DNA from: Polyangiaceae bacterium
GTDB taxonomy: Bacteria; Myxococcota_A; Polyangia; Polyangiales; Polyangiaceae
Assembly: GCA_029261965.1 (NCBI GenBank)
Contig: JAJDAH010000403.1
Location: forward strand, 1-64,000
Direction: 5' to 3'
Length of the DNA stretch: 64,000 nucleotides
The position numbers were made by a program, and so were the translations under genes. Below, one piece after another: positions 35,628-42,562 of this stretch. Below the pieces are notes generated by a model that saw only the letters and a program-made list of their open reading frames with translations, did not search any database and had not been told where the DNA came from. The number at the start of each line of letters is the position of its first letter. Within the stretch, counting starts at the first letter, position 1.

Positions 35628-36896
35628 CTACCCACGTGTAGGCGACGTACCGAGTCGCCTTTCCAAGAGTCGTTTCACAGCGAGGGTCGGCGCTGATTCG
35701 TACGCCAGCTCGCGATGCCGCGCGGCATCGTCGGTGTTGCCGCAACGACGATGCAGATCCGCCAGTACGGCAGCCCAAAGGTACGATCCGGCGAGCCAAG
35801 TCGGCGGCTTGGATCCCTCGAGCACGCGGAGCCCCGCTTCGGGTCCTTTCCACTCTGCAACCGCGACCGCGCGGTTCAGCTCGTGTATCGCAGAAGGGGC
35901 GACTCGCTCGAGAAGCGCGTAGCAGTCCACCACACGGTCCCATCGCGTCTGCTCGAAAGAGGGCGCGAGGCAGTGCTCCGCTGCGATGCCCGCTTCAGCG
36001 TGGTAGCGCGAGAAAACAGCTCCCTCTGCGGATCTCGCCAGCCAACGGAGGCCGGCCTGGATCCCCGCCTGGTCCCAAAGCTCGCGATCTTGCTCTTCGA
36101 GCAGAAGGAGCCCACCCGACGCATCCTGGCGCGAGGTCATCCGTGCCGCGTGCAGATGCATCAACGCCAGCAGCGCGAACGTTTCGGGGTCGTCGCCCAC
36201 CTGGTGCCCGGCCAGTAGCGTCGTGAGGCGCATCGCTTCGTCGCAGAGCTCCTGTCGAATGGCTTGCTCCGCGTGAGAAGAGAGGTACCCCTCGGTGAAG
36301 AGCAGATAGAGCACTCGGTTCACCGCCGGTCGGCGAACGGTGTACTGCTCCCCGGGGAGCTCCCCCGTGAGCTCCCCGGGTGCGCCCCGCCGCTCGCGAA
36401 ACCGCGCGCGGGCGCGCCCGAGGCGTTTGTAGACGTTGGCTTCCGTCGTGAAGAGCCGAAGCGCGATCTCCCGAACGCCGAAGCCGCAAAGAGTTTTCAG
36501 CGCCATCGCCAGCTGCGACTCGATGGGCACCGCCTCGTCGCAACAGACAAAGAGCATGCGAAGCAAGTCGTCCGGCACCTCCCCTCCGAGGAAAATCTCC
36601 GGGCCGTCCCTCGGCGTACCGATGTCTTCCTCCGCACTTCGTTCGAGAATTCGCTGACGGCCCGTGCGCTGACGCAGCTCTCCCATGAGGTCGTTGTGTG
36701 CCACCTGGTACAGCCAGGCAGACGGGTTGTCGGGGACCCCGCGCATGGTCCAAGCATCGAGAGCGGTCATCAACGCGGACTGAACGGCGTCCTCGACACT
36801 CTCGAGATATTGCACTCCCACTCGCCGCGACAACGTCGCGACGAGCTTTCCGTACTCGTGCCGGAAGAAGTGCTCGACCAGCTTGGGCGTGGTCAG
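35628..36896 (-). CDS. ECF42-type RNA polymerase sigma factor with C-terminal TPR-like extension
   Basis: 422 residues if read from a CTG at 36896 whose CTGA overlaps the stop of the DGPF gene; the first ATG-, GTG- or TTG-type start (TTG at 36833) would remove part of region 2. The upstream codons read TTPKLVEHFFRHEYGKLVATLSRR, which is the expected start of such factors, so the true start is probably the CTG. Region 2 continues with ESVEDAVQSALMTALDAW, region 4 has FGVREIALRLFTTEANVYKRLGRAR, and about 200 residues of helical repeats (DUF6596-like) follow, as in ECF42 factors that have no separate anti-sigma factor. Confidence 0.88.
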   Translation of the reverse strand: MTTPKLVEHFFRHEYGKLVATLSRRVGVQYLESVEDAVQSALMTALDAWTMRGVPDNPSAWLYQVAHNDLMGELRQRTGRQRILERSAEEDIGTPRDGPEIFLGGEVPDDLLRMLFVCCDEAVPIESQLAMALKTLCGFGVREIALRLFTTEANVYKRLGRARARFRERRGAPGELTGELPGEQYTVRRPAVNRVLYLLFTEGYLSSHAEQAIRQELCDEAMRLTTLLAGHQVGDDPETFALLALMHLHAARMTSRQDASGGLLLLEEQDRELWDQAGIQAGLRWLARSAEGAVFSRYHAEAGIAAEHCLAPSFEQTRWDRVVDCYALLERVAPSAIHELNRAVAVAEWKGPEAGLRVLEGSKPPTWLAGSYLWAAVLADLHRRCGNTDDAARHRELAYESAPTLAVKRLLERRLGTSPTRG

Positions 36897-37234
36897 GAGG
36901 TGTGGATCTCCCGAATCTCGACGCTCGACCCTGGCATCCCGACTCCGGGGGATTCACGAACGACCTCCATCGCCTTGTCCATGCTTTCAGCCTCGATGAT
37001 CATGAACCCTCCGATCACTTCCTTGGCCTCCACGAACGGACCATCGGTTGCGCCCTCGGACGAAACGATTTTCCCGTCGCTTTTGAGCTTGCCTCCCATG
37101 TCGAGGATGTTCGCCTGGAACTTGTCTTTCCAGGCGTTGAACTTGGCAAACATCTCCTGCATTTGGCCGGGGGACGGTTTTTCGCAGTCACCGGTCTCGC
37201 TTCGCTGGATGCATAGGTACTTCTTATTGGCCAT
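36893..37234 (-). CDS. DGPF/YCII-domain protein, partner of the ECF42 sigma factor
   Basis: 113 residues from the ATG at 37234, with a perfect GGAGGAG just upstream. The hallmark DGPFVEAKEVIGGFMI (about 70-85) places it in the YCII-related DGPF family, which is almost always encoded beside ECF42 sigma factors. The role of DGPF proteins is not established; they may be targets or cofactors of the sigma factor. The stop overlaps the start of the sigma gene (CTGA). Confidence 0.88.
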   Translation of the reverse strand: MANKKYLCIQRSETGDCEKPSPGQMQEMFAKFNAWKDKFQANILDMGGKLKSDGKIVSSEGATDGPFVEAKEVIGGFMIIEAESMDKAMEVVRESPGVGMPGSSVEIREIHTS

Positions 37235-37355
37235 GATTCTCCTCCATTGCGTCACGTCGGAACTACCGACCGATAGCCCATGACGCGCGAGCACTCTCGT
37301 TTTGGACACCCCGCGGCGATTTTTTCGAAAGTACCATCTGCCGGAGGGACGTGCG

Positions 37356-38451: not shown

Positions 38452-39162
38452 TCAGCTCCACCGATTCAACTGCCACGGGCTGTTCTTGTTCTCCGGGTCT
38501 TGCAGCACGCCGAGCGCGTGGACCAAGTCGTCGTCGTCGTCGTCATCGCTCCAGAAGTTGAACCCGGCCCGGTAGTTCTGGCCGAGTTCGGCCCAAGATC
38601 CGAGAGACTGACGGAGCTGACCCGCGTAGCCGAGAATGCGCTGCCACGCTTCCTCTTCCTGCAGGTACCCGACCGCGGCCCCCCAACGGCAGAGGGAAAT
38701 CGCGCGGGCGAGATCCCAAGCGAGTATCGACCGGTGCTCCTTCCAGAAGTCGAGCATCCCGGTGGCGTTCTTTCGAAACTCCACCATGGCTTCAGCGGTG
38801 ATGTTCTGCGCATCGGGCTCGCCCTGCAGGAGCTCGGAGGCATCCCGCTGAAACTCTCCCTTCGTCTCGAACAGCTGGCGAATTCGTTCGTACTCGGCAC
38901 GGTGCCCTGCCGACTCCAGGAACTGCAGCGTACCCAGCAAATCCTCGCGATTCTCGATCCCCCAGGCGGCGCCGAGCACCGCTTGGATCTGGGGCTGAGA
39001 CACGTCATCCGGCGGCCCCCCGTGCAACCACTCGTGCTCGTCGGAATTGATGTGGGCCAACGGAGCCGCGCAAGCGAGCGCCCACTTCTGCTCCGGCGTC
39101 GCTGCCGGATTGGGCACATATTCGGGAATGCTGCTGAAGAGAGACTTGATGAATTTGAGCAT
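38452..39162 (-). CDS. DUF1266-domain protein
   Basis: 236 residues from the ATG at 39162. No signal peptide. The C-terminal half fits DUF1266 (PF06889): an ILAWDLARAISLCRWGAAVGYLQEEEAW segment followed by a LRQSLGSWAELGQNYRAGFNFW block, then an acidic DDDDDDD run. The function of the family is unknown; members often cluster with secretion or envelope-stress genes. It is divergent from the toroid-GGDEF protein, with 171 bp between the starts. Confidence 0.8.
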   Translation of the reverse strand: MLKFIKSLFSSIPEYVPNPAATPEQKWALACAAPLAHINSDEHEWLHGGPPDDVSQPQIQAVLGAAWGIENREDLLGTLQFLESAGHRAEYERIRQLFETKGEFQRDASELLQGEPDAQNITAEAMVEFRKNATGMLDFWKEHRSILAWDLARAISLCRWGAAVGYLQEEEAWQRILGYAGQLRQSLGSWAELGQNYRAGFNFWSDDDDDDDLVHALGVLQDPENKNSPWQLNRWS

Positions 39163-39333
39163 GGCTAGCGGTCCTACGGCACCCGATCGACTTTCTTCCC
39201 TCCGAATTCGACGCACCTGGTCCGCAATCGGCACTCCCACGTGGGAGCTCACCGATGGTATGCCCGGCGCTGCAGCTACTCCCGAAGCGTCCCTTCACTT
39301 TACGCCGCCTCGTCGAACACGCATCATCACCGC

Positions 39334-40821
39334 GTGAGCGAGGCTCGAGGACGTGCTCGGCGTGCGCTGCTCGGGCTCGTCGACTCGGTTTCGCTCAGCG
39401 AGCCCTTCGCTTCGAGCATTGCTCTGTTCGCGGATGAGCAGCGGGAATCCCTCGCTTCACGCTTGCTCGAACACTGGGGCACTCGCTCACCCGGCAGCCC
39501 GGTTGGCCCCGATCGTTATCGCTGGGAGCTGACGCATGCGCGGGCAACCGGGATCCCGGAATACGCCGGGGATCCGGCCACGTGGACCGCATGGAAGCCA
39601 GCGGAGCAGACATTTCTTACCCAAGACCCATTCGCGTTCGAGGAGAGGCTCTCCGTCCCCATCGTGTCGACCGAGACCGCCGAGCTCCTGGCGCTTCTCG
39701 CCGACAGCGAGCGTCTCGCAGGGCCCGCGGCGGAAATGCTGCACGAGGCGGCGCCCGTCTTGAGACGAGACTTTGCGAGCTACATCCAGGCGCGCCACTC
39801 GTGGACCGACACGTTCGGGTTGTGGTGCGTAGTTCGCCATCCGCGCACGCTCGCGATGCTTCATCCCATGGCCTTTGCGATTGGCGAGTGCTACGCCGCG
39901 ACCGCCCGTCGAACGGACGGCACGGTCTTGGGCTCACGCTTTCCGTTTCACGACAAGCCGTTGGTGTCGGCTTCCGCTCAATTGGCGAGTGGACTCCTGG
40001 CGCTCGGCGCCGATGTCGATCTCGTCGTTGCGCTTTTCAATCATGTCGAGAGCAGTCGCGGCCCCGATGGCGCGTGGGGGGATGCGGACGGCCCCTCAGA
40101 CGTCATGACCACGCTCGTTGCGGCGGACTTGCTCGCACACGCCGATCCGGCTTTCGACCCCGCTCCGACGGTGAAGTGGCTCATCCAACGTCAGTGCGCC
40201 GATGGATTTTGGAAAGCGCTCGGTCCCGAAGCTCCATGGTCGACCCGCGAGGTGCTCGGCTTACTCGAAGCCGCAGCGAAGCCATTTGCGAGCCGATTCC
40301 GGTGGCCTCACGTGCAGGCGGCGAACTTGGACCACAAGACGCTCCTCCCCTCGTACGCGTACTTCAGCGAGGTCGCGTCGCTGTTTCGCGAGCTCCCGGG
40401 TCTCAGCGCAGCAAGCACCGAACTCGGCTTCATCGACCTTGCGGGCTTTCGCGACTTCAACAATCAGTTCGGCCAGGACCAGGGCGACGCGGTGCTAGCC
40501 TGCTTCGCTCGCGAGCTCGCTCGCGTCGACGGCGTCCGCGCGATCCGCGACGGTGGCGACGAGTTCTTGGTCGTCGGGGCGCCCACGGGCTCGGGTCTGG
40601 TCCCGGCTCTCGACGCATTCCGAAAGTCATGGCCGAAGCGCTTTGAAGCAGAATTCGGTGAAGGCGTGACCCCGGTGGCTCCGCGCGTGCTGGTGACCGA
40701 AGTCGCCGGGCGCCAGCTGGTTCGCGCCCGTGAGGAGCTTGGCCGAGCCGTCGCGCCCTTGAAGAAGAGGGAGCCCGCGCCTTCGCCCGAAGGGGTGTTG
40801 AGTCGGGTGAAGCTCGGTTGA
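39334..40821 (+). CDS. Fusion of a terpene-cyclase/prenyltransferase-like toroid with a GGDEF domain
   Basis: 495 residues from a GTG at 39334. The first 350 residues are mostly helical, and two repeats near 239-267 and 286-315 carry the motif of alpha/alpha-toroid enzymes (SRGPDGAWGD and QRQCADGFWK, each followed by a helix), as in squalene-hopene cyclases and prenyltransferases. Catalytic DxDD or zinc-binding residues are not evident. From about 364 a GGDEF domain follows: GFIDLAGFRDFNNQFG with conserved Asp and Asn, QDQGDAVL, then GGDEF itself at about 407-411, so it could make c-di-GMP. The usual inhibitory RxxD at the expected spacing is missing. No signal or membrane segment is visible, so the protein should be cytoplasmic. 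Confidence 0.75.
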   Translation: MSEARGRARRALLGLVDSVSLSEPFASSIALFADEQRESLASRLLEHWGTRSPGSPVGPDRYRWELTHARATGIPEYAGDPATWTAWKPAEQTFLTQDPFAFEERLSVPIVSTETAELLALLADSERLAGPAAEMLHEAAPVLRRDFASYIQARHSWTDTFGLWCVVRHPRTLAMLHPMAFAIGECYAATARRTDGTVLGSRFPFHDKPLVSASAQLASGLLALGADVDLVVALFNHVESSRGPDGAWGDADGPSDVMTTLVAADLLAHADPAFDPAPTVKWLIQRQCADGFWKALGPEAPWSTREVLGLLEAAAKPFASRFRWPHVQAANLDHKTLLPSYAYFSEVASLFRELPGLSAASTELGFIDLAGFRDFNNQFGQDQGDAVLACFARELARVDGVRAIRDGGDEFLVVGAPTGSGLVPALDAFRKSWPKRFEAEFGEGVTPVAPRVLVTEVAGRQLVRAREELGRAVAPLKKREPAPSPEGVLSRVKLG

Positions 40822-40976: not shown

Positions 40977-41972
40977 GTGGCGGCTTTGCGTTCTCGGATC
41001 CACGCTGTTTTTGCCGTCGCGGCCGGCGCCGCGATTCTGGTTGCCTCTGGGGAGGTTGCGGGTGCGACGGAGGATTGTCCGCGTGTCGTGGGGATCCGGG
41101 CGCCCAAGGCCGAGCGCGACGCCTTCCGAAAGATCCTTTCGACCGGAGCGTTGGCGGGCACCGACGGTGAGCCGTGTCTCGGTGCACACGTAGATCTTGT
41201 GCGAAGCGGCGACGGTTGGAGAGTGACGTTGCTCGTGGAAGGTCGCGAAACGACGCGCGAGGTGGACTCGCTCGCGGCGGCCGCGACCTGGGTCGAGAGC
41301 TGGCTTTTTCCAGTGCTCGAGCGGACTCGGCAGGGCGTGACCGTCCCGGCGCCGGCGCCGGCCTCCGCCAAGGAGCCCGCGCCGACCGCCGAGCAAGCCG
41401 AGGCGCCGCAGTCCCGAGTGATCGTGGCAGGACCGGAGGGTCAGGTGGCGCTTTTGGGCGGCATGGGCTTCGGTGAAGACGGATCGGCGTGGTCAGGACC
41501 AGAGCTCGGCGCGCGCCTCCATTTCACACGAACCGTATGGCTTGGCGCTGCGCTCGGCGCGGGCTGGGACACGCGCCTGTCTGGTCCGGCCCGGAATCAG
41601 GGCAACGTCGATCGGCACGGTGTTCGCGCTTCGGTCCGCGGCGGAGGACGAGGTTCGATTGGGCGGCGCGGCGATGCGGCGTTCGGTTTGGGCGTGGGCG
41701 TGGTGACGGGCCGCTCCAGTCGCAGTAGCGGCGCGGGAATGAACCAGAGCACAGAGCAAGGCGGCTTCTTCGGCGAGCTCCACCTCGATCTGTCGATGTC
41801 GATCGCAACAAACGTTTCCCTCATCGGTGGTGTTGCTGCTCGGGGGCATTTCCTCTCTTCCGGAAATCAGAACGATGGCGATGCCGAGCAACCACCTCCG
41901 CCCGATGCGTTGCCCCGGTTCGTCGCCGAAGGCCGAATCGGCGTCGGTTGGGACTTCGGAGGGGCTCGATGA
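40977..41972 (+). CDS. Predicted outer-membrane beta-barrel protein
   Basis: 331 residues from a GTG at 40977, chosen because it opens directly with a signal peptide (VAALRSRIHAVFAVAAGAAILVA). The first 110 mature residues form a small domain with a Cys pair (CPRVVG and GEPCLG); an Ala/Pro linker follows, and the last 170 residues are alternating strands ending in GRIGVGWDFGGAR, fitting a beta-barrel. Its stop overlaps the start of the sigma gene (ATGA), so the barrel, the sigma factor and the FecR-like protein are one operon, reminiscent of FecA-FecIR signalling in reverse order. Confidence 0.72.
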   Translation: MAALRSRIHAVFAVAAGAAILVASGEVAGATEDCPRVVGIRAPKAERDAFRKILSTGALAGTDGEPCLGAHVDLVRSGDGWRVTLLVEGRETTREVDSLAAAATWVESWLFPVLERTRQGVTVPAPAPASAKEPAPTAEQAEAPQSRVIVAGPEGQVALLGGMGFGEDGSAWSGPELGARLHFTRTVWLGAALGAGWDTRLSGPARNQGNVDRHGVRASVRGGGRGSIGRRGDAAFGLGVGVVTGRSSRSSGAGMNQSTEQGGFFGELHLDLSMSIATNVSLIGGVAARGHFLSSGNQNDGDAEQPPPPDALPRFVAEGRIGVGWDFGGAR

Positions 41973-42562
41973 CCGGCCGCGTCGTGAGGATCCGCAAGCC
42001 AGCCGAGTCGACGCCGAAGTGGAGCGACGAAGCCGTTGCCCATGCCGTATCCAGCGGTGATCCCGCAGCCGTGGCGGAGATGTTCGATCGCTTCCACGGT
42101 CCGGTTTCGCGCTACCTGTCTCGGATCGTCGGATCCGGACCGGATGTCGACGACTTGCTGCAGAACACATTCATGCAGGTCGCCCGCGGCCAGACGCGCT
42201 TCGAAGGTCGTTCGACCGTGTTGACTTGGCTTTTGGGGATCGCAACCAACGTTGCCCGGCACCATGTCAGGTCGAAGGTTCGGCAAGATCGATTGCTCCA
42301 AGCCGTGGCTCAGGAGTCCGCGCCGGCGCTGGAACCCGACCCGGGAGCCGCCGCCGAGGCGCGCCAAGTATTGCGGCGGGCGCAACGGGTGTTGGACGGA
42401 CTTCCCGACGAGCAGAGGTTCGCCTTCGTCCTGTGCGAGCTCGAGGGGCTCCGCGCTCGCGACGCGGCACGGATCCTCGAGACGTCGGAGACTTCCGTGT
42501 GGAAAAAGGTGTCGGACGCTCGCAAGGCTCTGAGGCTGGGCCTCGAACGGGGAAAGCCATGA
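41969..42562 (+). CDS. ECF-type RNA polymerase sigma factor
   Basis: 197 residues from the ATG at 41969, which overlaps the upstream stop. Region 2: MFDRFHGPVSRYLSRIVGS, DVDDLLQNTFMQV and STVLTWLLGIATNVARHHVRSK; region 4: LPDEQRFAFVLCELEGLRARDAARILETSETSVWKKVSDARKAL-type helix-turn-helix. The following gene encodes the probable anti-sigma factor, also overlapping by ATGA, so production of both is linked. Confidence 0.92.
   Translation: MTGRVVRIRKPAESTPKWSDEAVAHAVSSGDPAAVAEMFDRFHGPVSRYLSRIVGSGPDVDDLLQNTFMQVARGQTRFEGRSTVLTWLLGIATNVARHHVRSKVRQDRLLQAVAQESAPALEPDPGAAAEARQVLRRAQRVLDGLPDEQRFAFVLCELEGLRARDAARILETSETSVWKKVSDARKALRLGLERGKP

What the first reader, a model, noticed from the sequence alone, without database searches (positions are those of the whole stretch)
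39334..40821. Terpene-cyclase-like toroid fused to a GGDEF domain
The sequence shows two toroid-type repeats (SRGPDGAWGD and QRQCADGFWK) in a helical N-terminal part and, in the same reading frame, a GGDEF domain with the full GGDEF signature and its upstream Asp/Asn positions. I know GGDEF domains fused to sensors and transporters, but not to an alpha/alpha-toroid; the toroid might bind an isoprenoid or other lipid and control c-di-GMP synthesis. The inhibitory RxxD site seems to be missing. Neighbouring DUF1266 gene is divergent and could belong to the same pathway.
Basis: partly seen in the sequence, partly recalled or inferred. Interest (0 to 1): 0.85.

Follow-up and report, generated by a model that had tools for sequence, protein, structure and literature searches.

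The report
Terpene-cyclase-like toroid fused to GGDEF domain
A bacterial gene joins a ring-shaped domain, like those of enzymes that handle squalene and other isoprenoids, to a domain of the type that makes the signal molecule cyclic di-GMP; the same fusion occurs in distant bacteria, so it is a real protein family and a candidate for a signal maker controlled by a fat-like or other small molecule.

Summary
Window 39334-40821 (+) encodes one 495-residue protein. AlphaFold2 gives a single confident model (pLDDT 96.1, pTM 0.93). Residues 1-326 form an alpha/alpha toroid: the best solved matches are single-domain squalene-hopene cyclases (Z 16.6, 261 residues), and profile searches also reach squalene-hopene cyclases. 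Residues 328-495 form a complete GGDEF fold (PleD, Z 18). At least 25 relatives, 39-55% identical, occur in Myxococcota, Chloroflexota and an Eremiobacterota-labelled genome. No toroid copy without GGDEF was found among those read.

Metal- and guanine-binding GGDEF residues are invariant in 26/26; the RxxD inhibitory site is absent in 26/26. The toroid lacks the class II cyclase acid motif (DxDD). The C-terminal half of the GGDEF domain is divergent and its usual phosphate-binding motif is unrecognisable, so cyclase activity is likely but unproven.

Best reading: a soluble diguanylate cyclase whose non-catalytic toroid senses a ligand or partner. Isoprenoid as the ligand is untested; co-occurrence with squalene-hopene cyclase genes gives no support (3 of 9 carriers, 60 of 184 genomes overall). 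The DUF1266 neighbour is not conserved. No description of this fusion was found in the papers searched.

The parts
39334..40821 (+). toroid-GGDEF fusion gene, 495 aa (GTG start; a longer in-frame start at 39241 is possible)
39334..40311 (+). N-terminal alpha/alpha toroid, residues 1-326, about 12 helices
   Evidence: model m7e6c7c5ca70d pLDDT 96.1, pTM 0.94; 8paj_B Z 16.6, 8pak_B Z 16.5; profile hit to squalene-hopene cyclases
40057..40113 (+). first QW-like repeat and conserved acids, residues 242-260 (RGPDGAWGDADGPSDVMTT); D250 and D256 invariant; reads D-V-M-T, not D-x-D-D (register with the cyclase acid motif not proven)
40186..40248 (+). second QW-like repeat, residues 285-305 (QRQCADGFWKALGPEAPWSTR); G291, P298 and W302 invariant, E299 nearly so
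40288..40341 (+). short, mostly loop linker, residues 319-336, with no long stalk helix; R321, P325 and D333 invariant
   Evidence: DSSP of the model
40315..40818 (+). GGDEF domain, residues 328-495
   Evidence: PF00990; PleD Z 18, about 160 residues, rmsd 2.6-2.7
40435..40488 (+). metal/guanine segment, residues 368-385 (DLAGFRDFNNQFGQDQGD); D368, N376, D385 invariant in 26/26
40546..40566 (+). RDGGDEF signature, residues 405-411, invariant in 26/26

Best explanation
The protein is a soluble diguanylate cyclase with a new type of N-terminal sensor. SHOWN by sequence and predicted structure: residues 1-326 fold as an alpha/alpha toroid most like single-domain squalene-hopene cyclases, and residues 328-495 fold as a whole GGDEF domain; the pair is conserved as a unit across phyla. 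The GGDEF part keeps the metal- and guanine-binding residues and lacks the RxxD product-inhibition site. INFERRED: the toroid has lost the class II cyclase acid and works as a non-catalytic pocket for a ligand (isoprenoid, other lipid or another small molecule) or a partner. Binding changes how the GGDEF domains pair or how open the active site is, and so sets c-di-GMP output. Because the linker is a short loop and not the usual helical stalk, the signal probably passes through direct packing of toroid on GGDEF. Without the I-site, output would be set by the toroid and not by product feedback.
For: Confident whole-protein model and toroid-only model. Structure matches to squalene-hopene cyclase and PleD. 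Profile hits to squalene-hopene cyclases. 25 relatives with both domains; no toroid copy read without GGDEF. Invariant D368, N376, D385, RDGGDEF, K477 in 26/26 against a mean column identity of about 50%. No DxDD acid motif at a conserved position in any row. The GGDEF part is a discrete clade: members score 228 bits or more, the best other GGDEF 55 bits. All 13 host genomes checked hold 10 to 33 GGDEF and 2 to 12 EAL matches, so c-di-GMP turnover genes exist there.
Against: No assay. The C-terminal half of the GGDEF domain is unusual: the AD-x-ALY-x-AK-x-x-GRN phosphate-binding helix and the SIG strand are not recognisable, and the H of GHxxGD is Q or M. Pfam matches only residues 330-414. 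The fold does not single out isoprenoid binders: sugar epimerases reach Z 16.0 and TEP1 15.8. Squalene-hopene cyclase genes are not enriched in fusion-bearing genomes (3/9 against 60/184). PilZ receptors were not found in any of the 8 Chloroflexota genomes tested.
Confidence: 0.5

Rival explanations
1. The GGDEF domain is no longer a cyclase. It binds GTP or c-di-GMP and controls the toroid, which is the output (binding a lipid or a partner).
For: Divergent C-terminal half with loss of the canonical AD-x-ALY-x-AK-x-x-GRN motif; Pfam covers only the first half.
Against: All metal- and guanine-site residues and the full GGDEF motif are invariant in 26/26, whereas degenerate GGDEF effectors usually lose the motif (general knowledge). 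The RxxD site, the usual c-di-GMP binding site of such effectors, is absent.
Confidence: 0.2
2. The toroid is a protein-protein interaction or dimerisation scaffold without a small-molecule ligand, placing an always-active GGDEF domain at a partner.
For: Fold matches include TEP1, complement and alpha-2-macroglobulin domains, which work by protein contacts. The linker is short.
Against: Profile hits go to squalene-hopene cyclases and not to those domains. Conserved aromatic, acidic and basic residues (W64, W87, D159, D250, D256, E299, W302) suggest a pocket, though their placement was not seen.
Confidence: 0.18
3. The toroid is itself an enzyme, a cyclase or transferase with a non-standard catalytic acid, and the protein is bifunctional.
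For: Closest solved structures are squalene-hopene cyclases; several acids are invariant (D159, D250, D256).
Against: No DxDD at a conserved position in any of 25 toroids; no conserved Cys/His set like the zinc site of protein prenyltransferases; no terpenoid genes conserved beside it.
Confidence: 0.1

Closest known systems
Single-domain squalene-hopene cyclases of Archangium gephyra (8PAJ) and Cystobacter fuscus (8PAK); also the type II terpene cyclase MstE (6SBB)
   Same: alpha/alpha toroid of about 330-350 residues with QW-like repeats; Z 16.6 and 16.5 over 261-262 residues, rmsd 3.9-4.0, 16-17% identity
   Different: the window toroid lacks the DxDD acid motif and is fused to GGDEF
Diguanylate cyclases such as PleD and the Thermotoga maritima GGDEF protein (4URS)
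   Same: GGDEF fold, metal and guanine residues, D-x-x-T start motif
   Different: no helical stalk or known sensor before it, no RxxD I-site, C-terminal half divergent
Toroid superfamily of class II terpene cyclases, protein prenyltransferase beta subunits and thioester-containing domains
   Same: fold and repeat pattern
   Different: no catalytic motif of any of these was found

Membership tests
GGDEF domain (PF00990) | Pfam gathering score | tested here: met
   30.5 bits against 23.8; 26 of 26 members match at E<=1
GGDEF domain (PF00990) | complete GGDEF fold | tested here: met
   PleD 9g86_A Z 18.3, 158 residues, rmsd 2.7
Active diguanylate cyclase | metal and guanine residues and the GG[DE]EF motif | tested here: met
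   D368, N376, D385, RDGGDEF in 26/26
Active diguanylate cyclase | phosphate-binding K and R of the C-terminal helix | tested here: inconclusive
   canonical motif unrecognisable; invariant R466 and K477 may stand in
Active diguanylate cyclase | makes c-di-GMP from GTP | not testable with these tools
   needs an assay
RxxD I-site diguanylate cyclases | RxxD just before GGDEF | tested here: not met
   absent in 26/26
Alpha/alpha toroid of the terpene cyclase/prenyltransferase type | toroid fold | tested here: met
   Z 16.6 to 8paj_B over 261 residues, rmsd 4.0; profile hit to squalene-hopene cyclases
Class II terpene cyclase | DxDD acid motif | tested here: not met
   absent in the window toroid; no conserved occurrence in 25 toroids, only incidental strings in L047 and L048
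Prenyltransferase Pfam family PF00432 | Pfam match | tested here: not met
   window protein no hit at E<=10; 3 of 26 members, best E=0.031

The most novel reading that the evidence does not exclude
A terpene-cyclase fold that lost its chemistry became a sensor of an isoprenoid or other lipid and directly gates c-di-GMP synthesis: a lipid-sensing domain for c-di-GMP signalling, with a stalk-free way of passing the signal.
Probability: 0.28. Interest if true: 0.8.

Novelty: new variant of a known kind. Interest (0 to 1): 0.6.

Why it matters
A 2022 census of c-di-GMP sensing states that lipids may be sensed but that a sensor domain for them has yet to be identified in these systems (PMC8846402). 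This family is a concrete candidate with a solved-structure template on each side, small enough to express, and found in three or more phyla. It would also show a terpene-cyclase toroid reused as a signalling domain.

Tried and rejected
A link to DUF1266: no conserved neighbour. A link to hopanoid or triterpene synthesis: no enrichment. A conserved operon across the family: only within subclades. One Chloroflexota clade has F420 genes (CofC, CofE) and a luciferase-like gene upstream and a Pyr_redox_2 gene 54-85 bases downstream; two myxobacterial relatives share an alpha/beta-hydrolase-type gene just upstream. Stand-alone toroids: none found; the two weak hits (L040, L041) read as unrelated frames. 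A first genome scan with the single protein found nothing. Literature searches for GGDEF with terpene cyclase, prenyltransferase, toroid or hopanoid gave nothing relevant.

Full report
OBSERVATION. The frame 39334-40821 (+) encodes 495 residues. Pfam reports GGDEF over residues 330-414, E=3.8e-7 and above its cut-off; the N-terminal part has no Pfam family of its own.

FAMILY. A protein search in 59 related genomes found four full-length relatives, and the whole order gave 9 carriers in 184 genomes, the window's own included. An alignment-based scan of 84,980 species genomes gave 26 loci that belong to the family, besides three generic GGDEF hits. They come from Myxococcota (several Polyangiaceae and a Sandaracinus), Chloroflexota (Limnocylindrales-type genomes) and an Eremiobacterota-labelled genome with one close relative. 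Identity to the window protein is 39-55%. Some Chloroflexota genomes carry a second, diverged copy, also fused. In 177 genomes of one Chloroflexota class, 16 carry the toroid, and every copy I read continues into GGDEF. In the tree the Chloroflexota rows form one side of a branch at 90/86 support, and the window protein sits among the myxobacterial ones without a firm position. The distribution is patchy, which fits loss or transfer; I did not separate the two.

STRUCTURE. With 26 sequences AlphaFold2 gave mean pLDDT 96.1 and pTM 0.93 for the whole protein and, with 25 sequences, 96.1 and 0.94 for residues 1-326 alone. The GGDEF part aligns with PleD over about 160 residues at Z 18. The toroid's best solved matches are single-domain squalene-hopene cyclases from Archangium gephyra and Cystobacter fuscus (Z 16.6 and 16.5). 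Sugar epimerases and TEP1 follow at Z 16.0-15.8, so the fold alone does not fix the ligand class; Foldseek E-values for the toroid alone are modest (best 3.7e-3). Sequence profiles favour the cyclase type: hits at 1.6e-5 and 1.2e-4 go to squalene-hopene cyclases, resting mainly on the QW-like repeats. The linker, residues 319-336, is short and mostly loop in the model, unlike the helical stalk before most GGDEF domains (general knowledge).

CATALYTIC FEATURES. In 26 of 26 sequences D368, N376, D385 and RDGGDEF are invariant; by alignment to solved cyclases and to ordinary GGDEF domains these are the metal and guanine residues (roles from general knowledge of PleD). The RxxD inhibitory site is absent in every row. 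The C-terminal half differs from 16 ordinary GGDEF domains of related genomes (two of them identical): the SIG strand and the AD-x-ALY-x-AK-x-x-GRN helix are not recognisable, while R451, R466 and K477 are invariant. In profile searches the family's GGDEF domain is sharply set apart (members 228 bits or more, best outsider 55 bits). The toroid has no DxDD at a conserved position.

CONTEXT. All 13 carrier genomes checked have many GGDEF and EAL domains. PilZ is present in the myxobacterial and Eremiobacterota-labelled genomes and was not found in the eight Chloroflexota genomes. No neighbour is conserved family-wide. Squalene-hopene cyclase genes (PF13243) occur in 3 of 9 carriers and 60 of 184 genomes in the order, so no association with triterpene synthesis is seen.

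CONCLUSION. The fusion is real and conserved, and the toroid is most likely a non-catalytic sensor or docking domain on a probable diguanylate cyclase. The step from toroid to lipid sensing is inference. A census of c-di-GMP sensors (PMC8846402) says that no lipid sensor domain had been identified, which makes this family worth testing.

Noticed in passing
L050, L051, L053, L057, L059, L066: In one Chloroflexota clade the fusion gene lies near F420 biosynthesis genes (CofC, CofE), a luciferase-like monooxygenase, a Pyr_redox_2 gene 54-85 bases downstream (L053, L059), an ABC transporter and OsmC.
   Followed up: partly
L043:9001-9825 and L045:8898-9722: An alpha/beta-hydrolase-type gene ends 7-9 bases before the fusion gene in these two myxobacterial relatives, which suggests one operon there.
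   Followed up: partly
L094-L098 (G500, G501, G502, G505): A second, diverged toroid-GGDEF copy in the same genomes; one copy (L095) reads REGGDEF in place of RDGGDEF.
   Followed up: partly
window 35628-37309 (-) and 41948-42562 (+): A sigma-70-type factor with DUF6596 next to a YCII-domain gene, and a second ECF-type sigma factor gene downstream of the fusion.
   Followed up: no
window 38452-39252 (-): DUF1266 gene, divergent from the fusion gene; no homologue found near any relative.
   Followed up: yes
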